Origin: Burkholderia oklahomensis C6786 | GTDB taxonomy: Bacteria; Pseudomonadota; Gammaproteobacteria; Burkholderiales; Burkholderiaceae | Assembly (NCBI RefSeq): GCF_000959365.1 | Contig: NZ_CP009556.1 | Coordinates: 806,001 to 870,000 of the forward strand | Direction of reading: 5' to 3' | DNA: 64,000 nt | In this document: positions 4,410 to 14,707 of the stretch, one piece after another | Layout: every line of letters begins with the position of its first letter | Position numbering within the stretch: position 1 is the first letter of the stretch | Position numbers and translations under genes: made by a program | The notes under the pieces: model-generated | The model's database searches: none | What the model was told of the DNA's origin: nothing | Seen by the model: the letters and a program-made list of their open reading frames with translations, nothing else

Positions 4410-5381
4410 TCAGCCTTCTCGCTTTGCCGTCAGCCAGTCGAGCAGGAGCGTCGCGAACGCGTCGCTGTCTTCGAGCTCCGGCGAATGCCCCGCATGCTCG
4501 AAGCCCGGATGCCGAACCGCGTGCGGCACCTGCTGCGCGATCGACCATTTGTCGCTCTGCCGATGCGTGCGATCCGCCGCGCCCCACGTGAGCAGCGTCG
4601 GCTGCCGGACCTGCACGGCGCGCGGCGCGATATCGTAAAAGCGCTGCCACAGCGAGGCGAGGCAGCAGAACGCGCCGTGATCGAGCGACGTATCGAGCAT
4701 CGGCGCGAATTCGCGATAGCGGTCTTTCGCCATCGCCTGCCGGAACCAGCCGGTGCCGATCTTCCGCGCGGCGAATGCACACGCGCACTGCCCGACGACA
4801 GGCGTCGCGAGCAGGTTGCGCGCATCGACGTGCCGCGCCCACGCCACCTGTTCGTCCCATGCGGGGCTTTGCCAGAGCAGCAGCCTGCTGACGAGCGCCG
4901 GCTGCGCGGCCGCGATCTGCAACGCGATATGCGCCCATACGCACGAGAACGCGAGCAGGTAAGGCCCTTCGTTCAGATTCGCGAGCATCGCTTCGATCGC
5001 CGCAAGGTAGTCGTCGAACGAGAACGTGAAATGCCGGTTCGGCACGGAGAAGCCGAAGCCCGGCGGCTCGAAGCAGACCACGCGCGCGTGTTGCGCGACG
5101 CGCGAGAGCAACGGGTCGAAATGCTCGACGACGCTCGGCGGATCGCAGACGAGCACGATCGTCGGCCGTCCGCTCTCGCGCGGGCCGGCGGCGCGCACGC
5201 GGATCGTCGCGGCCGGCACGTCGATGAAACGCACGTCCGGCCGTGACTGCGCGGCCCAGCCGCGTTTGATCCGCGCCGCGCGCAAGCCGAGCCGCAGCGG
5301 ATCGAGCCACGTCATGTCGATGCCGTCGCGCCGCTCGCGAGCGGCCGCATGCGTCGATTCCTTCAGGCGCGGGGCGCTCAT
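4410..5381 (-). CDS. alpha/beta hydrolase, last gene of the lipid operon
   Basis: 323 residues with the alpha/beta-hydrolase fold. Hydrophobic strand IVLVCDPPS (about 75-83) leads to the oxyanion region. The nucleophile elbow reads LLAFSCVWAHIAL, so Ser146 is the expected nucleophile. The acid is in TWGAADRTH and the histidine in EHAGHSPELED. The elbow is odd: the usual small residues of GxSxG are replaced by Ala, Cys, Val and Trp, and a cysteine (Cys147) follows the serine. The start lies 6 bases after the upstream thioesterase stop, so the two are probably translated together. In this setting it could release, cleave or trim an acyl-ACP product. That role is inference. Confidence 0.85.
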   Translation of the reverse strand: MSAPRLKESTHAAARERRDGIDMTWLDPLRLGLRAARIKRGWAAQSRPDVRFIDVPAATIRVRAAGPRESGRPTIVLVCDPPSVVEHFDPLLSRVAQHARVVCFEPPGFGFSVPNRHFTFSFDDYLAAIEAMLANLNEGPYLLAFSCVWAHIALQIAAAQPALVSRLLLWQSPAWDEQVAWARHVDARNLLATPVVGQCACAFAARKIGTGWFRQAMAKDRYREFAPMLDTSLDHGAFCCLASLWQRFYDIAPRAVQVRQPTLLTWGAADRTHRQSDKWSIAQQVPHAVRHPGFEHAGHSPELEDSDAFATLLLDWLTAKREG

Positions 5382-5387
5382 CGCACT

Positions 5388-5807
5388 CTACTTCGTCGGC
5401 CAGAGGATCATCTGCGTGCAGCGGAACGTCGCGAGCAGCTTGTCCGTTTCGCGATGCCGGACGGTCGCGTCCCACACTTGCGTCATGCGGCCGCTGTGGA
5501 TCGCGCGCGCCTCGCAGACGATCGCGCCGTCGCGCGCGGTGCCCATGAAATTGCTCTTCAGTTCGAGCGTACTGAAGCTGGATGCGCCTTCCGGCAGGCT
5601 CGCGAGACATCCGTAGCCGCACGCGGTATCGGCGAGGCTCACGATCGTGCCCGCATGAAGGATGCCGTGCGCGAGCACGGCCTTGCGGATCGTCAGCTCG
5701 GCGAGCACGTGGTTTTTCTCGACCTGGTCGACGACGATGCCGAGCAGGCCCGGCAGATAGTCGGCGCCGAACCGGTTGAAGTAGTCCGCATCCAGTTTTT
5801 CTTGCAT
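5388..5807 (-). CDS. PaaI-type hotdog thioesterase
   Basis: 139 residues from ATG at 5807, chosen because GAGGAA lies about 8 bases upstream. The earlier in-frame ATG at 5840 overlaps the preceding gene and has no ribosome-binding site. The family helix-turn GILHAGTIVSLADTACGYG (about residues 48-66) carries the catalytic region of PaaI/YdiI thioesterases, which hydrolyse acyl-CoA or acyl-ACP thioesters in the cytoplasm. It begins 13 bases after the fatty acyl-AMP ligase gene and is followed 6 bases later by the alpha/beta hydrolase. This placement makes it the most likely product-release or editing enzyme for the operon's carrier protein. Confidence 0.88.
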   Translation of the reverse strand: MQEKLDADYFNRFGADYLPGLLGIVVDQVEKNHVLAELTIRKAVLAHGILHAGTIVSLADTACGYGCLASLPEGASSFSTLELKSNFMGTARDGAIVCEARAIHSGRMTQVWDATVRHRETDKLLATFRCTQMILWPTK

Positions 5808-5820
5808 GCCGCGTTCCTCG

Positions 5821-7638
5821 TCAGTTGTTCCGGGTTTCATTCGGCGCGTCGAGCTGCGCGCGCCACTGGGTGATCACCGGCAGCGTGTCGTTGAGAAACA
5901 GTTCGCGACAGGCGTGCCGCTGGACCTTTCCGCTCGTCGTCTTCGGTATCGCCGACGGCGACGTGAAGACGATGTTGTGCACCGCGATGCCGTGGTGCAG
6001 ATTGATTGCCTGACGCAGTTTGCCGAACAGCGCGTCGGGCGTATGGCCGCTTTCGCGATCGCCGTCGCCGAATGCCTTCAGATAGCGCGCCCGCAGCTCG
6101 CGCACGACGATCACTTGCGGCGCGGCGTCGGCCTCGAGCGCGAACACCGCGCATCCGCCGGGGCGAAACAGTTCGGCGTCGAGCGCCTCGATCGTCTCTT
6201 CGACGTCGTGCGGGTAATGATTGGCGCCGCGAATCAGCATCATGTCCTTCAGGCGGCCCGTGACGAAAACTTCGGGCCCCGACCGATAACCATAGTCGCC
6301 GGTGCGCAGGAATCGCCCGTCATAGCCCGGCAGCTCGGCTTCGAAAATCTGTTCGCTCAGCGCGCGATTGTTCCAGTAACCGAGCGCGACGCTCGGCCCT
6401 TGCGCCCAGATTTCGCCGACCCGGCCATCATCGCATGGAATGCGCGTATCGGGATCGACGATCCGCACTAGACTGTCGCCGGCCGCGTCGCCGCATCCGA
6501 TCGCCGTGCTCGCGCGTTGTGTTTCGGATTCTGCGCGCACCGGTTCCGCATCGCGCGGCGCGACGACGACGGGCGGCTGCGATTTCAGGCCGCCCGTCAT
6601 GAACAGCGTGTGCTCGGCCAGGCCGTAGCACGGATAGAACGCCCGCGCGTCAAAGCCGCAGCGCGCGAAGCGCTGCGAGAACGCGTGCAGCGTGCCGTGC
6701 CGGATCGGTTCGGCGCCGACGAATGCGAGGTCCCACGAGCTGAGATCGAGCTTGTCGAAATCGGCATCGGCGATGCGCATCGTCGCGAGCATCTGGTATG
6801 CGAAGTTCGGTCCGCCGCTCGTCGTCGCGCGCCGCTCGCCGATCGTGCGCAGCCAGCGCAGCGGATGCTTGAGGAAATCGACGTGCGACATCAGCGTCAC
6901 CGGAAAGCCGACGTAGAGCGGCTGCAGGATGCCGCCGATCAGCCCCATGTCGTGATACGGCGGCAGCCAGATCACGCCGCGGCTGTCAGTGTCGTGCTCG
7001 AAGCGGCTCGCGATCAGCGCGGAATTGTGCAGCAGGTTCCGGTGGCTGATCATCACGCCCTTCGGCGCGCCGGTCGAGCCGGACGTGTATTGCAGGTAGA
7101 CGGGCGATCGATGATTCACGGGCGGCGGGACGTAGCGCCCGGCGCTGTCGCCGAGCGTGTCGACCGTGATCCAGCGCAGCCCGCCGAGCGCGGGCGAGCC
7201 GGCTTCGATGCGGTGCGCGTCGTCGCGCACGATCGTCGTCGACAGGATCGCGGCCGGCGTGCAATTCTCGACGATGCCGATCAGCCGCCGCAACGTGCGC
7301 TCCGCCTGCGCGGGCTCGACCGGATACGCGGGCACCGCGACGACGCCCGCATACATGCAGCCGAACAGCGCGGCGATGTAGTCGATTCCGGGCGGAAACA
7401 GCAGCAGCACGCGGTCGCCGGGGCGGGCGACCTGGGCCAGCGCCGCCGCGACGGCGCCGGCGCGTCGGTCCAGATCGGCGCAAGTGAGATGCTGCTCCGC
7501 GCGATCGCCGCCCGTGATGAACGAATAGACTCGCAGATCGGGCTGATGCGCGGCGCGGTATCGCGTCAGTTCGACGAAATCGGCGAATGCGTCGGCGGCC
7601 AGTGCGTCGATGGGCGGCGAGTGGTCGGCATGCGTCAT
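5821..7638 (-). CDS. fatty acyl-AMP ligase (FAAL)
   Basis: 605 residues from ATG at 7638, which overlaps the upstream stop as ATGA. An AMP-binding P-loop YTSGSTGAPKG (about 184-194) is followed by WLPPYHDMGLIGGILQPL and a fixed HVDFLKHPLRWL stretch, the layout typical of FAALs rather than acyl-CoA ligases. FYPCYGLAEHTLF, the RTGDYGY element and the C-terminal lysine region TTSGKVQRH complete the adenylation domain. FAALs activate a free fatty acid as acyl-adenylate and hand it to a carrier protein instead of CoA. The acceptor is presumably the ACP encoded at 10640-10924 in the same operon. This gene and the ACP are the main reason for reading the region as a biosynthetic pathway rather than beta-oxidation. 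Confidence 0.92.
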   Translation of the reverse strand: MTHADHSPPIDALAADAFADFVELTRYRAAHQPDLRVYSFITGGDRAEQHLTCADLDRRAGAVAAALAQVARPGDRVLLLFPPGIDYIAALFGCMYAGVVAVPAYPVEPAQAERTLRRLIGIVENCTPAAILSTTIVRDDAHRIEAGSPALGGLRWITVDTLGDSAGRYVPPPVNHRSPVYLQYTSGSTGAPKGVMISHRNLLHNSALIASRFEHDTDSRGVIWLPPYHDMGLIGGILQPLYVGFPVTLMSHVDFLKHPLRWLRTIGERRATTSGGPNFAYQMLATMRIADADFDKLDLSSWDLAFVGAEPIRHGTLHAFSQRFARCGFDARAFYPCYGLAEHTLFMTGGLKSQPPVVVAPRDAEPVRAESETQRASTAIGCGDAAGDSLVRIVDPDTRIPCDDGRVGEIWAQGPSVALGYWNNRALSEQIFEAELPGYDGRFLRTGDYGYRSGPEVFVTGRLKDMMLIRGANHYPHDVEETIEALDAELFRPGGCAVFALEADAAPQVIVVRELRARYLKAFGDGDRESGHTPDALFGKLRQAINLHHGIAVHNIVFTSPSAIPKTTSGKVQRHACRELFLNDTLPVITQWRAQLDAPNETRNN

Positions 7639-8621
7639 CGTGTCGTCTCCGTCGTCGGTCCGGCTGCGAGCGTTGCGGCCGACGCGCCCGCATGCGCGCC
7701 GCCGTCGAACAGCGCGCTGGCGTTTTCCCACAGCACCTTGTGCAGCACGTCCGCGGGCAGATAGCGCTTCAACTGCTCGATTTCGAAATCCCATTCGTAC
7801 GGGATCAGCGGAAAGTCGCTGCCGTACAGAAAACGGCCGGGACGATCGCATATTTGCGGCACGAGCTGTTCGAGCGCGGGCTTCCACGGCGTCGGCAGAC
7901 GCGGATGCGCGCCGCGCGGAAAGCGCGTCTCCCGCAGCGGCCTGACGTCGGGCACGATCTCGCCCGTCGCGACGCGGTGTCCGCCGAACGCCATCGCCGT
8001 ATCGAAATGCAGGTTGGGGAACGCGTCGAGCAGATCGACGTACTCCTGAACTTCGTCATAGCCGATGTGCGGGACGACGACCTTCAGATGCGGCGTGCGC
8101 CGCATCGCGCGCCGGAAGCGATCGACGTTGCAGAAGCGGCGGATTTCATCCATCTGCGCGTTGTTCTTCGCGACGGCGCCCGAATGCAGGTTCAGCACTT
8201 TGCCCCGTTCGGCGACCGCTTCGAAAATGGGCGCGAGCGCGTCGTCGTCCGGCGCCATCTTCAGCAAGTGACAGTGGATCTTGAGGCCGGCGAAGTTCAG
8301 CTCGTCCAGGACGCGGACGGTCTCGCGCGCGCAATCGCGGTCGTGCGGATGCACGGTGCCGAACGGCACGACGAACGCCGGATGCCGCGACGCCAGTTGC
8401 GCGACGAAGTCATTGAGGAACGGCGCGATGCCCGGCTGCGCCGCATAGCAGATGCCGGCCGCGCGCGCGACGCCGCGCTCCTTCAGGAAGGCGATCGATT
8501 GCTCGGCGAGCAGTTCATGGCGAATCTTCCACGCGTCGCGCTCGTAGTTCTTCCAGACGAGCTTCGAGACGACGTCGGGCAGCATGTGCACGCGCGCATC
8601 GAAGATCTTGAGTGTCGTCAT
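7635..8621 (-). CDS. amidohydrolase-2 family metal-dependent hydrolase or decarboxylase
   Basis: 328 residues resembling the TIM-barrel amidohydrolase_2 family (ACMSD, resorcylate decarboxylase and related hydrolases). Likely metal-site features are the N-terminal FDARVHMLP, where the usual HxH is reduced to a single His, LKIHCHLLK, NLHSGAV, VVVPHIGYDE and the acid in LYGSDFPL. It overlaps the FAAL gene by 4 bases (ATGA), which implies translational coupling. Several relatives are non-oxidative decarboxylases, others cleave C-C or C-N bonds. In a fatty-acyl pathway a decarboxylation or hydrolytic tailoring step is plausible, but the substrate cannot be deduced. Confidence 0.82.
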   Translation of the reverse strand: MTTLKIFDARVHMLPDVVSKLVWKNYERDAWKIRHELLAEQSIAFLKERGVARAAGICYAAQPGIAPFLNDFVAQLASRHPAFVVPFGTVHPHDRDCARETVRVLDELNFAGLKIHCHLLKMAPDDDALAPIFEAVAERGKVLNLHSGAVAKNNAQMDEIRRFCNVDRFRRAMRRTPHLKVVVPHIGYDEVQEYVDLLDAFPNLHFDTAMAFGGHRVATGEIVPDVRPLRETRFPRGAHPRLPTPWKPALEQLVPQICDRPGRFLYGSDFPLIPYEWDFEIEQLKRYLPADVLHKVLWENASALFDGGAHAGASAATLAAGPTTETTR

Positions 8622-8660
8622 CGCGAGATCCGGTCGATTGCTGTCGAAGGAGAACGTGCG

Positions 8661-9695
8661 TCATGCATCGCCGCGACGCGCGTCAGCGAGCCGTTGGCGG
8701 ATCGCGTCCCGATCGGGATGCTGGACGTCCCACACCAGCCCCAGCCGCTCGAGCAGCGCGATCAGCGATCCGGTCACGTCGATCTGCCATCGATTGAAGC
8801 GCGTGCTCGCATATTGCGGAAATGCATGGTGGTTGTTGTGCCAGCCGGCGCCGAGCGTCAGGATCGCGAGCCACCATGCGTTGCGGCTCTGGTCGCGGCC
8901 GGGAAACGGCCGGCGGCCGCCGAGCGAATGGCCGACGGAGTTGACCGCCCAGATCGCGTTCGTCGCGAGGAAGATCCGCACGGCGCCGCCCCACAGCAGG
9001 CCGAGCAGCGCGCCCTTCCACGACAGATCGAGCAGCCCGCCGATCGCGGCCGGCAGCAGCAGGCCGAACAGCAGCCAGAAGTCGTACGCGAGATGGATGC
9101 GCAACAGCGTCGGGTCGCGGTACATGTCGTTCGCGTATTGGTTCCAGCCCTTCGGGCGCGCGGACGACGGGTCGAACAGCCAGCCGACGTGGCCGTGCAG
9201 GATGCCCTTCGCGCGGCCGACGAAGCCGCGCCCGCCCAACTGCGGCGTATGAGGATCGCCGGGCCGGTCGGCGTTCGCGTGGTGCAGCCGATGAATCGCG
9301 ACCCACCACATCAGCGGCCCCATGTAGGCGAGCGAGCCGAGGATCGCGAGCGCGATCTTCACCGGCGGCGCGGCCTTGAACGTGCGATGCGCGAAGTAGC
9401 GATGCAGTGCGAGCTCCATGCCGAGGATGTTGAGCACGTAGAAGACCGCGAGCATCGCGACGTCCTGCGCGCGCGGGGCCAGGCCGAAGCCGGCCCAGAG
9501 CGCGAGCGCGGCGACGGTGCCGACGGCCGGTATCGACGCGACGCCCAGATGGCGCGCCGACGACGCGCGCGACAGGTGCCCGGACGCGCGATCGCCGGGC
9601 GGGGACGGAGCCGCCGAACCGGTCGGCGATGCCGCGCGGTCCGGCGCTTCCGCGCGGCCTGCGCGGCCGGCGTTGTCGGCGGGCGCGTCCTTCAT
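8661..9695 (-). CDS. membrane fatty acid desaturase (second of two)
   Basis: 344 residues from ATG at 9695. The three histidine clusters of membrane di-iron desaturases are present: HRYFAH (98-103), HRLHH (135-139) and HNNHH in GWHNNHHAFP near the C-terminus, with HTP following the second box as in delta-9 (stearoyl-CoA type) desaturases. About 50 residues of Pro/Ser/Ala/Gly-rich sequence precede the first membrane segment. Its start overlaps the methyltransferase stop (ATGA). It likely introduces a cis double bond in an acyl chain at the inner membrane. The operon context suggests an ACP-bound substrate, which is inference. The amidohydrolase follows after 39 bases. Confidence 0.9.
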   Translation of the reverse strand: MKDAPADNAGRAGRAEAPDRAASPTGSAAPSPPGDRASGHLSRASSARHLGVASIPAVGTVAALALWAGFGLAPRAQDVAMLAVFYVLNILGMELALHRYFAHRTFKAAPPVKIALAILGSLAYMGPLMWWVAIHRLHHANADRPGDPHTPQLGGRGFVGRAKGILHGHVGWLFDPSSARPKGWNQYANDMYRDPTLLRIHLAYDFWLLFGLLLPAAIGGLLDLSWKGALLGLLWGGAVRIFLATNAIWAVNSVGHSLGGRRPFPGRDQSRNAWWLAILTLGAGWHNNHHAFPQYASTRFNRWQIDVTGSLIALLERLGLVWDVQHPDRDAIRQRLADARRGDA

Positions 9696-10627
9696 GCGAC
9701 GGCCGCCCGATGTTGCGAGCCGGCGTGAATCCGGTTCGGCTCGATGCGCCGGAACGTGATTCGATACAGCACGAACGCGCCGAGATCGAACGAATAGCTC
9801 ATCGTCCGGTACAGCCGCTCGTAGCGCTCGACCACCTCGAGCGGCGCGAGCTCGAGCGCCTCGCGGCGATGCGCGCGCAGGTTCTCGAACCACGCGCGCA
9901 TCGTTTTCACGTAGTCGTGGCGATCGTTGCGGACGAGCTCCACTTCGAACAGCATTTCGGATGCCCGAACGATATCCGCGAGGTACGGCAGATCCGATTC
10001 CGGAAAGACTTCGCGCGCGATGAAGAGATCCGAATGCTGGCGGTCGCGGGGCACGTCGCCGTAGCCCATCGTCTGCAGCGACAGCCGGCCGCCGGGCTTC
10101 AGGAAATCGTGGCACTTCCTGAAGAAATGCCGATACGCTTGAACCTTGTCTTCGCCGATCTTCGCGAAGTGCTCGAACGCGCCGAGCGAGATGATGCCGT
10201 CGAACGGCCGCTCGGGCTCGTAGTCCTGCCAGTTCCGCAGCAACGCGTCGATGCCCGGGTGCCGGTATCGCTCGCCGATATATTTGAGCTGCTCGTTCGA
10301 CAGCGTGAGCCCCACGACCTCCTTCACGCCGGCGGCCGTGGCGAGCCGGTCGAGCAGCGCGCCCCAGCCGCAGCCGATGTCGAGCACGCGTTCCGCGCCG
10401 CGCGCCCGGATCTGCGCGATGTGGTAATCGAGCTTGCGGATCTGCGCCTGTTCGTGCGTATCGCCTTCCTCGTACATCGCGCACGAGTAGTTGCGGCCGC
10501 TTTCCTGCGCGAGCGCGAGGAACGCATTGCCGATGTCGTAGTGATACTGGATCGCGTCGGCGGACGCGCCGTACGGCGCGCCGCGATTCGGCGCGCCGGT
10601 TTCCCGGTTCTCGAGCTGGACGGTCAT
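9692..10627 (-). CDS. cyclopropane-fatty-acyl-phospholipid synthase-like SAM methyltransferase
   Basis: 311 residues. The N-terminal YHYDIGNAFLAL is the CFA-synthase family opening. The SAM site follows as VLDIGCGWGALL (81-92), then LTLSNEQLKY and a DGIISLGAFEHF segment. It is shorter than classical CFA synthase (about 380 residues) because the N-terminal lipid-binding region is missing, resembling mycolic-acid methyltransferases that act on carrier-bound chains. The reaction would be methylene transfer to a double bond (cyclopropane) or C-methylation, using the desaturases' product. It is preceded by the ACP gene (12-base gap) and overlaps the second desaturase. Confidence 0.88.
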   Translation of the reverse strand: MTVQLENRETGAPNRGAPYGASADAIQYHYDIGNAFLALAQESGRNYSCAMYEEGDTHEQAQIRKLDYHIAQIRARGAERVLDIGCGWGALLDRLATAAGVKEVVGLTLSNEQLKYIGERYRHPGIDALLRNWQDYEPERPFDGIISLGAFEHFAKIGEDKVQAYRHFFRKCHDFLKPGGRLSLQTMGYGDVPRDRQHSDLFIAREVFPESDLPYLADIVRASEMLFEVELVRNDRHDYVKTMRAWFENLRAHRREALELAPLEVVERYERLYRTMSYSFDLGAFVLYRITFRRIEPNRIHAGSQHRAAVA

Positions 10628-10639
10628 CGTTCGGTCTCC

Positions 10640-10924
10640 CTATCGATTGGCCGACAGATCGGCGAGCGCCTGCGCGAGCGCGTCGATCGTCGGATGTTGA
10701 TAGGGCAGGCTCGGGGACAGCTCGAAGCCGAGATAGTCCTCGAGATCGCCGACCATCCGCATCGCGTCGGCCGAATCGAGGCCGTATTCGATGAACTGCT
10801 TGTTCACGTCGATCGAGCCGCTGTCGGTGCGCAGCCTGGCTGCCAGATAGCCTGTCATCCAGTCGAGGATGTCCTCGTGGCTTCTCGCGTCGATTTCCAC
10901 TGCCTTCAAGATGGCGCTCTTCAT
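10640..10924 (-). CDS. acyl carrier protein
   Basis: 94 residues with the carrier-protein core. The phosphopantetheine attachment motif is GLDSADA with Ser51, followed by the acidic recognition helix and the PTIDALA segment near the C-terminus. It has more N-terminal sequence than housekeeping AcpP and resembles stand-alone carriers paired with FAALs in polyketide and polyyne clusters. It lies between the first desaturase and the methyltransferase, which fits a pathway run on a dedicated ACP. Activation would need a phosphopantetheinyl transferase encoded elsewhere. Confidence 0.92.
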   Translation of the reverse strand: MKSAILKAVEIDARSHEDILDWMTGYLAARLRTDSGSIDVNKQFIEYGLDSADAMRMVGDLEDYLGFELSPSLPYQHPTIDALAQALADLSANR

Positions 10925-10949
10925 TTTCTGGGTTCCCGTCGAGAGTCGT

Positions 10950-11984
10950 TCATGGTGTGATGCGCTTCTTTTCGATGAGTGCTTCGGAGGGGCGATGCAC
11001 GTCGTAGACGAGGTGCAGGCGCTCCAGCACGCGTACGAACAGCCCGCCCGGATCGATCTGCCACCAATGCAGCCCGGTGAACGCGGATGCGGGAAACGCG
11101 TGATGGTTGTTGTGCCAGCCCTGGCCGAACGTCGGGATCGCGAGCAGCAGGCTGTTGCGGCTGCGGTCGTGCGCGGTGGTGTGGAAATCGCGCCGGCCGA
11201 TCACGTGGCACAGCGAGTTCAGCGCCCAGATGCAATGGCTGACCGCGAAGATCCGCACCATGTCGCCCCACAGGAAGCCGAGCAGCACGCCCGTCCACGA
11301 ACGCGACGCGAGCCCGCAAATCAGCGGCGGCAGCGCGAGGCCGATCCAGACCCAGCGGTAATACGCCATGTGCTGCTTGAAGACGAGCGGGTCCTGGTAC
11401 AGGTCGGGCACGTATTTTTCCCATCCCGCCGGCCGCGTCGACTCGCCGACGAACAGCCAGCCCATGTGGCTGTGATACAGGCCCTTGAGCCGGCCGCCGA
11501 CGCCTTCGCCCGACAGGTGCGGCGAATGGGGATCGCCGTCGCCGTCGCTCGTCGAATGATGGCGCCGGTGCGTCGACGCCCACCAGTTGACGGGGCCGTG
11601 CGCGCCCATCGAGCCGAGCGCGATCAGCGCGGCCCGCACCCACGGCTTCGCCTTGAACGCCTTGTGCGTCACGTGGCGATGAAAGCCGACTTCGAGCCCC
11701 AATGCGGTCGCGAAATAGAAGACCGCGAACACGATCAGTTCGACGGCGCCCGGCCCATGGCCGCCGACCCATAAAGCGATCGCCGCGACCGTGCCCAACG
11801 CGGGAAGCAGCGTGACGACGGCGGCGATACGGCGATCGAGACGGACGGCTGAACGGGGCAAGATGCTTGTCGGGCGAGCCAAGCCATGCGAATCGGAAGA
11901 AAAAGACGCGGGAATCGCGCTTCCGATCGCACCCTCGGGCTGGCTCGCACCTTCGCTCGGAGACGGAGGCTGGCCGGAGCTCAT
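10950..11984 (-). CDS. membrane fatty acid desaturase (first gene of the lipid operon)
   Basis: 344 residues with histidine boxes HRHVTH (102-107), HRRHH (139-143) and HNNHH (in GQGWHNNHHAFP), separated by paired hydrophobic segments as in delta-9-type membrane desaturases. A Ser/Pro/Gly-rich N-terminal extension of about 48 residues mirrors that of the second desaturase (8661-9695). The two differ enough in sequence to suggest different positions or substrates rather than recent duplication. It is the first gene after an AT-rich promoter region, and the ACP gene follows after 25 bases. Confidence 0.9.
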   Translation of the reverse strand: MSSGQPPSPSEGASQPEGAIGSAIPASFSSDSHGLARPTSILPRSAVRLDRRIAAVVTLLPALGTVAAIALWVGGHGPGAVELIVFAVFYFATALGLEVGFHRHVTHKAFKAKPWVRAALIALGSMGAHGPVNWWASTHRRHHSTSDGDGDPHSPHLSGEGVGGRLKGLYHSHMGWLFVGESTRPAGWEKYVPDLYQDPLVFKQHMAYYRWVWIGLALPPLICGLASRSWTGVLLGFLWGDMVRIFAVSHCIWALNSLCHVIGRRDFHTTAHDRSRNSLLLAIPTFGQGWHNNHHAFPASAFTGLHWWQIDPGGLFVRVLERLHLVYDVHRPSEALIEKKRITP

Positions 11985-12675
11985 CAGATATCTCTCAGTA
12001 AATTGTTTGGTACATATTTCATTGATGACATTTGAAACTCAATATGAATTTTCCTATCGTCAACGCTGAAGTGTTTGATACACCAAAGCAGCTTTTCGAG
12101 GCGGAATTAGGATTCGAATGTGTCAATCGGATAAAGATTGCCGGAAACCGTTTCCAGCGCCTCGCGCGCTTCCTAGTCCGACGTGCGTCGTTTCGATGCG
12201 GTGAACGATGGATAGCGCTGGACTTGATATCGTGACGGTGCGGCGGGGGCAGGCAGGTTTTGGAAGCGATTCCTGAAAACCGAGGAAATATTCGATGAAC
12301 GAATCGGCCAGATTTTGTCGCGATGTGGATTCGGACGGATTCAGACAGCTTGCCGGAATCGGATGTAATTTAAATGAATGGCGATAAAAAAGATCGAATT
12401 GGTGCGCGGCATATCCGCGAGCGCCATTTCGATTCAATGACGGACTGAATTGATCAGATCGCGCTGAGACGCGCTCGGCGGGCCGCGGCGTACGCCGCCG
12501 TATTCGGATGGTCGAGCGCCTTTTGATCGGGTTTGAATCGACGGCGCGCGATGTCGGCGTGCCGTCGTCCGGCGCGGGGTGCCCGCTTTGCGTCGCTGGT
12601 CGTCGCGGAAAGAAGAAGGCGCGCCGCTCGGCGCGCCTTTTGTCATCGAGCGATGCCGTGGCGAAGCGGCGCCGG
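11985..12675. other. intergenic region with promoter of the lipid operon
   Basis: No supported gene. Bases about 11995-12130 and 12340-12440 are AT-rich, unlike the surroundings, and should hold the promoter and regulatory sites of the minus-strand desaturase operon starting at 11984. Short plus-strand frames here lack ribosome-binding sites. The right end holds the transcription terminator at 12616-12639 that closes the operon to its right. Confidence 0.5.
12616..12639 (-). terminator. rho-independent terminator of the acyl-CoA ligase transcript
   Basis: A perfect 10-bp inverted repeat, AAGGCGCGCC and GGCGCGCCTT, with a 4-base loop (GCTC). Read on the minus strand it is followed by TCTTTC. 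It lies 36 bases beyond the stop of the minus-strand acyl-CoA ligase gene. Confidence 0.8.
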
Positions 12676-14337
12676 TCACGCCGCGTCGGACTCCCAGACG
12701 ACCGCCGCCCCCCGCGCGTCCCACGCCTCGAGAAACGGCGCATACCGCTCTTCGACGCGATTCCTGCGCACCTTGAACGTCGGCGTCACGAATCCGCTCG
12801 TCTCGTTCCAGATCGAATCGACGACCACGACGAAGCGCAGCTTCTCGTGATCGTCGAGGCTCGCGTTGACGCGTTCGAGATGCTCGCCGAGCGACGTCGC
12901 GAGCGCCGCGCGCCGGCCGTTGCCGTCGAGCCGGCGGCCCTCGTCGGACAGCGACACGAGCGCGCACGGCTGCGACAGCCCCGCGCCGACGACACAGCAC
13001 GCGTCGATGAACGGATGCGTCGTCAGCCGGTTCTCGATCGGCGACGGCGCGACGTACTTGCCCTTGCTCGTCTTGAAGATCTCCTTCACGCGCCCGGTGA
13101 TCTTGAGGCGGCCGGCGTCGTCGAGCTCGCCCTTGTCGCCGCTGCGCACGAAGCCGTCCGGCGTGAAGAGCGCGGCAGTCAGGTCCGGGCGCTTGTAATA
13201 GCCGATCGTGTTGCCCGGCGAGCGGATCTCGATCTCGCCGGAGTCGGCGAGGCGGCTCTCGACGCCGCGCACCGGCGTGCCGACGTAGCCGGGCCGCATG
13301 TCGTGCCGCCGGCACGAATGCGACACGCCGCAGACTTCGCTCATCCCGTAGCCTTCGAGCAGCTCGAGCCCGAGATCGCGATACCAGGTCAGCAGCGCGG
13401 GCTCGATCGCCGCGGCCGCGCTCGCGGCGAGGCGGACCTGATCGAGGCCGAGCTGCTGCAGGATCATCGGCTTCATCGCATCGGGAATCGGGCCGGGCGG
13501 CAGGCGGCTCGCGACCGCGTGCCGGAACTTCGCCCAGAGCCGCGGCACCGAGATGAAGAACGTCGGCCGCGCGCGCTGCAGATCGGCGATGAACGTATCG
13601 AGCGATTCGCTGAAGTGAACGGTGAACCCGGTGCGCACCGACAGCATCTCGACGTAGCCGCGCTCCGCGACGTGCGACAGCGGCAGGTACGAGATCATCC
13701 GGTCGTCGGGCCCGAGCGCGATCAGGTCGAAGACCGGCTCGACGCACCATGCGAGCGCGCCGAACGTCAGCATCACGCCCTTCGGATCGCCCGTCGTGCC
13801 CGACGTGTAGACGATCGTCGCGAGTTCGTCGGCGGCGCGCGTCACGTGGTCCGCGAGCGGTGCGGTGTCGCGGACGATGTCGTCCCATCGCGCGCCGTCG
13901 AATGGCGCGCCGGACAGATACGGCAGGCCGATGCATCGCACGTGCGACGGCACGCCCGCGCGGATCTGCTCCCATGCATCGAGCTTGCCGACGAACAGCG
14001 CCGCCGCTTCGCTGTGCGTCAGGACTTGCCGGATCGATTCGGCGCCGAGCGTCGGATAGAGCGGCACCGATACATGGCCGCTCAGCCAGATCGCGAAATC
14101 GGCGAGGATCCAGTGCGCGCAGTTCTTCGACAGGATCGCGATGTTCGAGCCGCGCGGCAGGTCGAGCGCGCGCAGGTGCGCGGCGATGCGGCGCGCTTCG
14201 TCGACCGCCTCGCGCCACGTGAAGCGGCGGACTTCGCCGCCGCCTGTCGGCTGGACGAGCCAGATGTCGTCGGCGCGCGCGCGTTCCCAATGCTGAAGCC
14301 GTTCGAGCGGCAGGTTGTCCGGGGCGATCGAGGTCAA
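12676..14337 (-). CDS. AMP-dependent acyl-CoA synthetase (AtuH/FadD-like)
   Basis: 553 residues from a TTG start at 14337, supported by AGGAG 7 bases upstream. The frame is open further 5' but that part is arginine-rich and unlike a ligase. The adenylation P-loop is YTSGTTGDPKGVML, followed by YLPLSHVAERGYVEM, GYGMSEVCGVSH and RSGDKGELDDAGRLKITGR, with the lysine-containing TSKGKYVAPSPIE near the C-terminus. The layout matches long-chain or bubblegum-type acyl-CoA synthetases, which make acyl-CoA from a free acid, ATP and CoA. It is the 3'-terminal gene of the Atu-like group. A ligase is also found at that place in Pseudomonas atu clusters, suggesting activation of a branched or terpenoid acid. 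Confidence 0.88.
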   Translation of the reverse strand: MTSIAPDNLPLERLQHWERARADDIWLVQPTGGGEVRRFTWREAVDEARRIAAHLRALDLPRGSNIAILSKNCAHWILADFAIWLSGHVSVPLYPTLGAESIRQVLTHSEAAALFVGKLDAWEQIRAGVPSHVRCIGLPYLSGAPFDGARWDDIVRDTAPLADHVTRAADELATIVYTSGTTGDPKGVMLTFGALAWCVEPVFDLIALGPDDRMISYLPLSHVAERGYVEMLSVRTGFTVHFSESLDTFIADLQRARPTFFISVPRLWAKFRHAVASRLPPGPIPDAMKPMILQQLGLDQVRLAASAAAAIEPALLTWYRDLGLELLEGYGMSEVCGVSHSCRRHDMRPGYVGTPVRGVESRLADSGEIEIRSPGNTIGYYKRPDLTAALFTPDGFVRSGDKGELDDAGRLKITGRVKEIFKTSKGKYVAPSPIENRLTTHPFIDACCVVGAGLSQPCALVSLSDEGRRLDGNGRRAALATSLGEHLERVNASLDDHEKLRFVVVVDSIWNETSGFVTPTFKVRRNRVEERYAPFLEAWDARGAAVVWESDAA

Positions 14338-14707
14338 TGTCGTCTCCTGGCGAGCGCCGGGCGCGCGCGGCGGCCGCGGTCTCGGTTCGTTGTGATGCGG
14401 CGGCCCGGTGCATTCGAACAGCGCCGACGTGCGCCGGTTTCGTCGGTTCGGAACGGCGTCGACGGCCTCCCGAAAATCCTCACCTTTCGTGCTCGACGCG
14501 CAGTGCGTGATGCGCGATGCATGCGCACGCATCGCGTTTCCACGCGCAGACCAAGCGCGGACGCATAGGCTTGCGTTGCAGCGGATGCAAGTCTCGCGCT
14601 CGCTACCGCGTCGCTACAACCTCCGCAGTGTCCGCGGTACGCCGGCCGCACACGCGGCCGATGCTGCCATTGCGATCAAGCATCCATCCGATCGCGTTTC
14701 CACCCGA
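14338..14707. other. intergenic spacer inside the Atu-like group
   Basis: 370 bases between the BKACE gene and the acyl-CoA ligase, both minus strand. I see no gene. The length suggests the ligase may have its own promoter here. Confidence 0.4.

What the first reader, a model, noticed from the sequence alone, without database searches (positions are those of the whole stretch)
4410..11984. Dedicated acyl-ACP operon: FAAL, own ACP, two desaturases, CFA-type methyltransferase, amidohydrolase, thioesterase, hydrolase
Eight minus-strand genes are packed with 4-base overlaps or short gaps (gaps 25, 12, ATGA, 39, ATGA, 13, 6 bases). A FAAL and a stand-alone ACP imply that a free fatty acid is loaded on a carrier outside housekeeping metabolism, as in polyyne and other lipid-derived natural-product pathways. 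Here, though, the core is two desaturases plus a short CFA-synthase-like enzyme and a possible decarboxylase. The logical product is a cyclopropane, methyl-branched or otherwise modified unsaturated fatty acid released by the thioesterase or hydrolase. I do not recognise the combination as a described cluster.
Basis: partly seen in the sequence, partly recalled or inferred. Interest (0 to 1): 0.85.

Follow-up and report, generated by a model that had tools for sequence, protein, structure and literature searches.

The report
Carrier-bound fatty-acid desaturation and methylation operon
Eight linked bacterial genes probably load a fatty acid onto a dedicated carrier protein, unsaturate it, add one carbon and release it: a variant of known alkyne-making gene sets whose product has not been identified.

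Summary
In detail: eight minus-strand genes (4410-11984), with the stated gaps, encode two membrane desaturases, a stand-alone ACP, a CFA-type methyltransferase (MT), an amidohydrolase-fold protein (AMH), a FAAL, a hotdog thioesterase and an alpha/beta hydrolase. The order is kept in 7 Burkholderia genomes (an eighth is cut by a contig end); the MT orthologue occurs in 8 of 65 Burkholderia genomes, in differing surroundings. The FAAL/desaturase/ACP core is of the published jamABC 'alkyne' type; a 2021 phylogeny lists B. pseudomallei, thailandensis and ubonensis in its largest clade. It is not a polyyne cluster: no third desaturase type, no rubredoxin. The least known part is the MT. It lacks the N-terminal domain of housekeeping CFA synthases and has Gln at the bicarbonate-binding His in 135 of 135 aligned homologues. 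In 14 of 15 distant loci it lies beside an ACP gene with a FAAL within 8 kb; 0 of 10 chosen control CFA-synthase loci have these. Best reading: an ACP-tethered pathway to a one-carbon-branched (perhaps cyclopropane) unsaturated fatty acid. Product, chain length and the AMH step are inferred. New variant of a known kind; none of ten searches of the held open-access library found the combination described.

The parts
10950..11984 (-). DES1, membrane fatty-acid desaturase (344 aa)
   Evidence: PF00487; own clade of 10 rows, separate from DES2 and from polyyne desaturases
10640..10924 (-). ACP, stand-alone acyl carrier protein (94 aa)
   Evidence: PF00550; GLDS motif in the translation; PDB matches Asl1650 and Pks13 ACP
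9692..10627 (-). MT, CFA/mycolic-acid-type methyltransferase without the N-terminal domain, Gln185 at the His position
   Evidence: PF02353
8661..9695 (-). DES2, membrane fatty-acid desaturase (344 aa), overlaps MT by ATGA
   Evidence: PF00487; nearest solved structures are acyl-CoA desaturases; clade of 10 rows
7635..8621 (-). AMH, amidohydrolase-2 TIM barrel (328 aa) with RxH in place of HxH
   Evidence: PF04909; model pLDDT 85.3; nearest folds; motif counts
5821..7638 (-). FAAL, fatty acyl-AMP ligase (605 aa), overlaps AMH by ATGA
   Evidence: PF00501; FAAL models and FAAL structures; FAAL tree
5388..5840 (-). hotdog (4HBT/PaaI-type) thioesterase; likely start at 5807
   Evidence: PF03061; orthologue starts
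4410..5381 (-). alpha/beta hydrolase (323 aa)
   Evidence: PF00561; S146, D270 and H299, the presumed triad, invariant in 9 of 9
12616..12639 (-). terminator-like hairpin between the upstream acyl-CoA ligase (12676-14532) and the operon
   Evidence: 10 pairs, 8 G-C; 3 such sites found in 851 bases against 1.3 +/- 1.2 in shuffles, so a consensus match only

Best explanation
The eight genes form one operon for a carrier-bound fatty-acid tailoring pathway. Shown by sequence: the gene set, its order, its conservation and the MT's unusual active site. Inferred: the FAAL activates a free medium- or long-chain fatty acid as acyl-AMP and loads it on the dedicated ACP. DES1 and DES2 put one or more unsaturations into the ACP-bound chain. 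[quoted passage not shown] Because the bicarbonate-binding His is Gln, I expect proton loss to a methyl- or methylene-branched unsaturated chain slightly more often (about 55:45) than ring closure to cyclopropane. The AMH then acts on the polar end or on an oxidised group; I give a decarboxylase or hydrolase role about 50%. The thioesterase and/or the hydrolase release a small modified fatty acid or a product of it.
For: Order kept in 7 genomes and MAG core. FAAL, ACP, desaturase and CMAS family matches. MT lacks the extra N-terminal domain (at most 22 residues before the core against at least 111 in 14 housekeeping enzymes) and its best PDB matches are mycolic-acid methyltransferases. ACP gene beside MT and FAAL within 8 kb in 14 of 15 distant loci, desaturase in 12 of 15; 0 of 10 chosen control CFA-synthase loci have any of the three. 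Gln185 in 135 of 135 rows; PMC9821293 passages say the bicarbonate-binding residues, H167 of CmaA1 among them, are essential for ring formation. CFA-like UfaM gives methyl-branched olefins (PMC7380195 abstract and passages).
Against: No metabolite, expression or enzyme data. The AMH has no place in known FAAL/desaturase pathways and its metal site is altered. Gln at the His position is not confined to ACP-linked genes: L073 (33% identity) has Gln, a weak ligase and a weak desaturase match, and no ACP match. Two release enzymes are more than one pathway needs. Some of the 15 distant loci are close pairs (L051/L052, L058/L062), so they are not all independent.
Confidence: 0.62

Rival explanations
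1. A terminal-alkyne pathway in the strict JamABC sense: one desaturase is a desaturase/acetylenase, the product is an alkynyl fatty acid, and MT and AMH are secondary tailoring.
For: FAAL/desaturase/ACP gene set; PMC8406139 counts B. pseudomallei, thailandensis and ubonensis homologues as alkyne cassettes and cites a characterised B. pseudomallei alkyne locus. A DES2 relative in B. gladioli is named JamB by UniRef (P0179).
Against: That paper infers alkyne capacity from gene content for this clade. DES1 and DES2 form clades apart from the polyyne desaturases, with deep branching open. Characterised JamB and TtuB were not in the tree. What Zhu 2015 measured was not available.
Confidence: 0.25
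2. Cyclopropane variant of the best explanation: the MT closes a cyclopropane on the ACP-bound chain, Gln185 or another group standing in for the His.
For: CMAS family match; Glu152 and Tyr239 kept in 135 of 135 rows and Cys49 in 115 of 135. Cyclopropane fatty-acid natural products exist, for example imidacins (PMC11301661, parts 1-2 of 3 read).
Against: Gln in place of the bicarbonate-binding His in 135 of 135, against His in 14 of 14 housekeeping enzymes and in 10 of 10 controls.
Confidence: 0.28
3. A membrane- or envelope-lipid modification system analogous to mycolate modification rather than a diffusible metabolite.
For: MT nearest to mycolic-acid methyltransferases, ACP matches Pks13, FAAL also matches FadD32.
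Against: No acyltransferase or glycerolipid gene among the eight; patchy distribution (MT orthologue in 8 of 65 genomes); a thioesterase and a hydrolase suggest release of the chain.
Confidence: 0.12

Closest known systems
jamABC-type FAAL/desaturase/ACP 'alkyne' cassette (PMC8406139, section 5 read; Zhu 2015 not held)
   Same: FAAL, membrane desaturase and ACP together; the paper's largest clade includes species of this group, and its remark that the genuine FAAL of the B. pseudomallei locus lies downstream of the first-named ligase fits this layout.
   Different: Second desaturase, CFA-type MT and AMH; the word 'methyltransferase' does not occur in that paper's main text.
Bacterial polyyne clusters (PMC8406139; six polyyne-type loci L066-L071 compared)
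   Same: FAAL, desaturases, ACP, a hydrolase
   Different: All six have three desaturases and a rubredoxin and no MT match; this locus has two desaturases, the MT and AMH, and no rubredoxin match.
Uncharacterised FAAL-desaturase-ACP-MT clusters with P450 (L048, L049, L057, L059, L060)
   Same: Desaturase-ACP-MT order, FAAL and an alpha/beta hydrolase; a PaaI-type thioesterase near in L048, L057, L059 and L060, weak match only in L049.
   Different: P450 in place of DES2 and AMH; MT only 41-47% identical.
Mycolic-acid methyltransferases (CmaA, MmaA, PcaA)
   Same: Best solved-structure matches of the MT; no added N-terminal domain; MmaA4/Hma shares Gln at the His position.
   Different: Hma residues Glu146 and Ser178, which hold a water in fragment-bound structures (PMC8708032 passages), align with Gly149 and Met187 here (my count of the offset); 'acts on AcpM-bound chains' is recalled, not from a call.

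Membership tests
jamABC-type cassette | co-located FAAL, membrane desaturase and stand-alone ACP | tested here: met
jamABC-type cassette | desaturase forms a terminal alkyne on the ACP-bound chain | not testable with these tools
   needs reconstitution; characterised JamB/TtuB sequences not fetched
bacterial polyyne cluster | three desaturases and a rubredoxin | tested here: not met
   two desaturases; no match to the third type or to rubredoxin in the 64 kb at E<=0.01
FAAL | closest to fatty acyl-AMP ligases rather than acyl-CoA ligases | tested here: met
   top NCBIfam and PDB matches; the upstream ligase falls on a separate long branch (quick tree)
phospholipid-type CFA synthase | CMAS catalytic domain | tested here: met
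   PF02353, E 8.3e-57
phospholipid-type CFA synthase | extra N-terminal domain before the catalytic core | tested here: not met
   20 residues before the core against at least 111 in 14 housekeeping enzymes
phospholipid-type CFA synthase | bicarbonate-binding His, Glu and Tyr | tested here: not met
   Glu152 and Tyr239 kept, His replaced by Gln185
Hma/MmaA4 hydroxylating type | Gln at the His position, with Glu146 and Ser178 equivalents | tested here: not met
   Gln shared; the other two align with Gly149 and Met187
amidohydrolase-2 decarboxylases (LigW, resorcylate decarboxylase, ACMSD) | amidohydrolase TIM-barrel fold | tested here: met
   a shared fold shows no function
amidohydrolase-2 decarboxylases (LigW, resorcylate decarboxylase, ACMSD) | HxH (ExH in LigW, recalled) metal motif on strand 1 | tested here: not met
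   RxH in the window and in 26 of 49 covered rows; HxH in 23

The most novel reading that the evidence does not exclude
The MT belongs to a carrier-protein-dependent, bicarbonate-independent branch of the CFA-synthase superfamily that puts methyl or methylene branches on ACP-bound unsaturated acyl chains in FAAL cassettes of Pseudomonadota and Actinomycetota (close relatives also in Myxococcota, context unseen); in Sphingobium it would feed an AHL synthase and so make branched-acyl signals.
Probability: 0.35. Interest if true: 0.75.

Novelty: new variant of a known kind. Interest (0 to 1): 0.55.

Why it matters
If right, one operon type joins FAAL loading, desaturation and one-carbon branching on a dedicated carrier protein, a combination that none of ten searches of the held open-access library found described. 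It makes a clean question testable: do CFA-type enzymes that lack the bicarbonate His branch their substrate instead of closing a cyclopropane? It marks an unassigned metabolite locus in the B. pseudomallei complex and B. ubonensis, and supports the downstream FAAL, not the upstream acyl-CoA ligase, as the loading enzyme.

Tried and rejected
Rejected. Polyyne cluster. The upstream acyl-CoA ligase (12676-14532) as loading enzyme: on a separate long branch of the FAAL tree, present beside the block only in L040-L042, and separated by a terminator-like hairpin. Imidacin-type pathway: urocanate-primed PKS, no FAAL described in the parts read (PMC11301661, parts 1-2 of 3). AFC-BC11 pathway: no amidohydrolase in the main text and a different assembly logic (PMC12186527 passages). 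Furan fatty acid pathway: a chemical precedent, but on phospholipids (PMC7380195 abstract and passages).

Led nowhere. The plasmids collection held no AMH relative at E<=1e-30. A phylum-wide MT search did not complete, so Myxococcota contexts were not seen. Ten paper searches listed no paper that I could see describing such a methyltransferase in such a cassette; of the listed papers I opened nine, mostly passages. Zhu 2015 (PMC4684755) is not held. The second structure job and the viral fold library were not used. Of the pairs of desaturases I fetched five Burkholderia loci as polyyne comparisons; other such pairs in that list were not fetched. The 10 control loci were chosen by me from the 34-38% identity matches.

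Full report
OBSERVATION. The eight genes are present as described. In transcription order: DES1, ACP, MT, DES2, AMH, FAAL, thioesterase, alpha/beta hydrolase; gaps 25, 12, -4, 39, -4, 13 (with the thioesterase start used by most orthologues), 6. dN/dS against up to six relatives is 0.03-0.44 for seven genes and 0.15-0.83 for the 94-aa ACP.

ORIGIN. The window's own assembly is not held; the nearest held genome, G001, shares 20% of its sampled 31-letter words. An AMH named B. pseudomallei (P0002) is 83% identical to the window's by local alignment and 86% in alignment A1; G001's is 91%. I therefore read the window as a member of the B. pseudomallei complex, probably not B. pseudomallei itself; the species is not established.

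DISTRIBUTION AND SYNTENY. In 65 Burkholderia genomes the MT has an orthologue of 80-96% identity in 8. In 398 genomes of the family, AMH has a relative at E<=1e-30 in 7, all in this genus. The genome-contig scan confirmed two loci: B. ubonensis LMG 20358 and a Burkholderiales MAG. All eight genes are in the same order in L040-L046; L047 lacks only the hydrolase, at a contig end; the MAG has DES1-ACP-MT-DES2-AMH-FAAL contiguous, the hydrolase about 4.5 kb away and no thioesterase match. The acyl-CoA ligase flanks the block only in L040-L042, and the neighbours in L043-L047 and L032 differ, so the block appears to travel as a unit. In protein searches 12 of the 23 AMH relatives of at least 53% identity share the exact longest-contig length with a listed DES2 relative, 6 of the 12 also with a listed MT relative (the MT and DES2 lists are capped at 120); this is indirect evidence of co-location.

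THE METHYLTRANSFERASE. It is of CMAS type, its best PDB matches are mycolic-acid methyltransferases, and it aligns from position 117 of the E. coli-type CFA model. In 14 correctly read housekeeping-type CFA synthases of Burkholderia at least 111 residues precede the core, here at most 22. PMC9821293 (passages) states that H167, E140 and Y232 of CmaA1 form the bicarbonate site and that these residues are essential for ring formation. In the MT family the Glu (152) and Tyr (239) are kept and the His is Gln185 in 135 of 135 aligned rows; position 49 is C in 115, S in 10, A in 5, G in 4 and a gap in 1 (window, 14 loci and the 120 listed proteins, some of them near-identical). The 14 housekeeping-type enzymes have His, E. 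coli Cfa has LLHTIG, and the ten control loci have His. Hma/MmaA4 also has Gln; it converts the olefin to a hydroxylated, methylated product (PMC8708032 passages). Its Glu146 and Ser178, which hold a water in fragment-bound structures, align with Gly149 and Met187 here, so hydration is not specifically predicted. Ring closure is in doubt, not excluded.

ASSOCIATION WITH A CARRIER PROTEIN. I took the non-orthologous MT matches of 40-60% identity (5 loci), the further matches at E<=1e-55 in 399 genomes of the order (3) and the 7 plasmid records at E<=1e-50. An ACP gene lies beside the MT gene, and a FAAL within 8 kb, in 14 of these 15; a desaturase in 12 of 15. The exception, L065, is a contig of 9.8 kb. 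Annotation agrees in four plasmid records and in part in L062; L060 and L061 carry no annotation and rest on tblastn. L051/L052 and L058/L062 are close pairs, so fewer than 14 events are independent. Control: 10 CFA-synthase loci with His, chosen, 17-18 kb each, same queries: no ACP, FAAL or desaturase match. Against: L073, a 33% identical gene with Gln, has a weak ligase and a weak desaturase match but no ACP match.

CASSETTE TYPE. PMC8406139 (section 5 read; passages) describes jamABC (FAAL, desaturase, ACP), places 4,013 of 4,990 JamA sequences in a basal Burkholderia clade that includes pseudomallei, thailandensis and ubonensis, and says the genuine FAAL of the earlier B. pseudomallei alkyne locus lies downstream of the protein first taken as JamA. 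That fits this layout, but the figure and the 2015 paper were not available, so the identity of the two loci is not shown. Polyyne membership fails: six polyyne-type loci (five Burkholderia, one Streptomyces plasmid) all have a third desaturase type and a rubredoxin and no MT match, and the window has neither of the first two. In the desaturase tree (56 rows) DES1 and DES2 form two separate fully supported clades of 10, with deeper branching open. The upstream ligases of L040-L042 fall on a separate long branch of the FAAL tree (quick method).

KNOWN AND NEW. Ten searches of the held open-access library found no description of a CFA-type methyltransferase in a FAAL/desaturase/ACP cassette. PMC11837247, a FAAL review, has no occurrence of 'cyclopropan' or 'amidohydrolase' in its main text (passages seen only). 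Subscription literature is not covered. Verdict: a known cassette core with an unreported methylating branch and an unknown product, that is, a new variant of a known kind.

Noticed in passing
L058 5887-9767 and L062 7881-11642: On two Sphingobium plasmids the ACP, CFA-type MT and FAAL genes follow a LuxI-type acyl-homoserine-lactone synthase gene (so annotated in L058; 79% identical protein in L062) instead of a desaturase, which suggests signal molecules with a methylated acyl chain.
   Followed up: partly
window 11985-12675; L040 4599-6352; L041 11559-13313; L042 5070-6815: A regulator-like gene (name by eye) and an isochorismatase-like gene (name by eye) lie between the ligase and DES1 in G001, G036 and G018, but give no tblastn hit anywhere in the 64-kb window.
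   Followed up: partly
P0008 and P0179, longest contig 403,586 bases: B. gladioli carries AMH and DES2 relatives with the same longest-contig length, so probably on one replicon; UniRef names the desaturase JamB.
   Followed up: no
P0053-P0058: Five named myxobacterial proteins (Stigmatella, Vitiosangium, Archangium, Cystobacter) and one unnamed protein are 78-79% identical to the MT, and carry Ser at position 49; their gene neighbourhoods were not seen.
   Followed up: no
L050, L056, L063, L064: In four distant loci ketosynthase/PKS-like genes lie in the same block as FAAL, desaturase, ACP and MT, so the modified acyl chain may prime a polyketide there.
   Followed up: no
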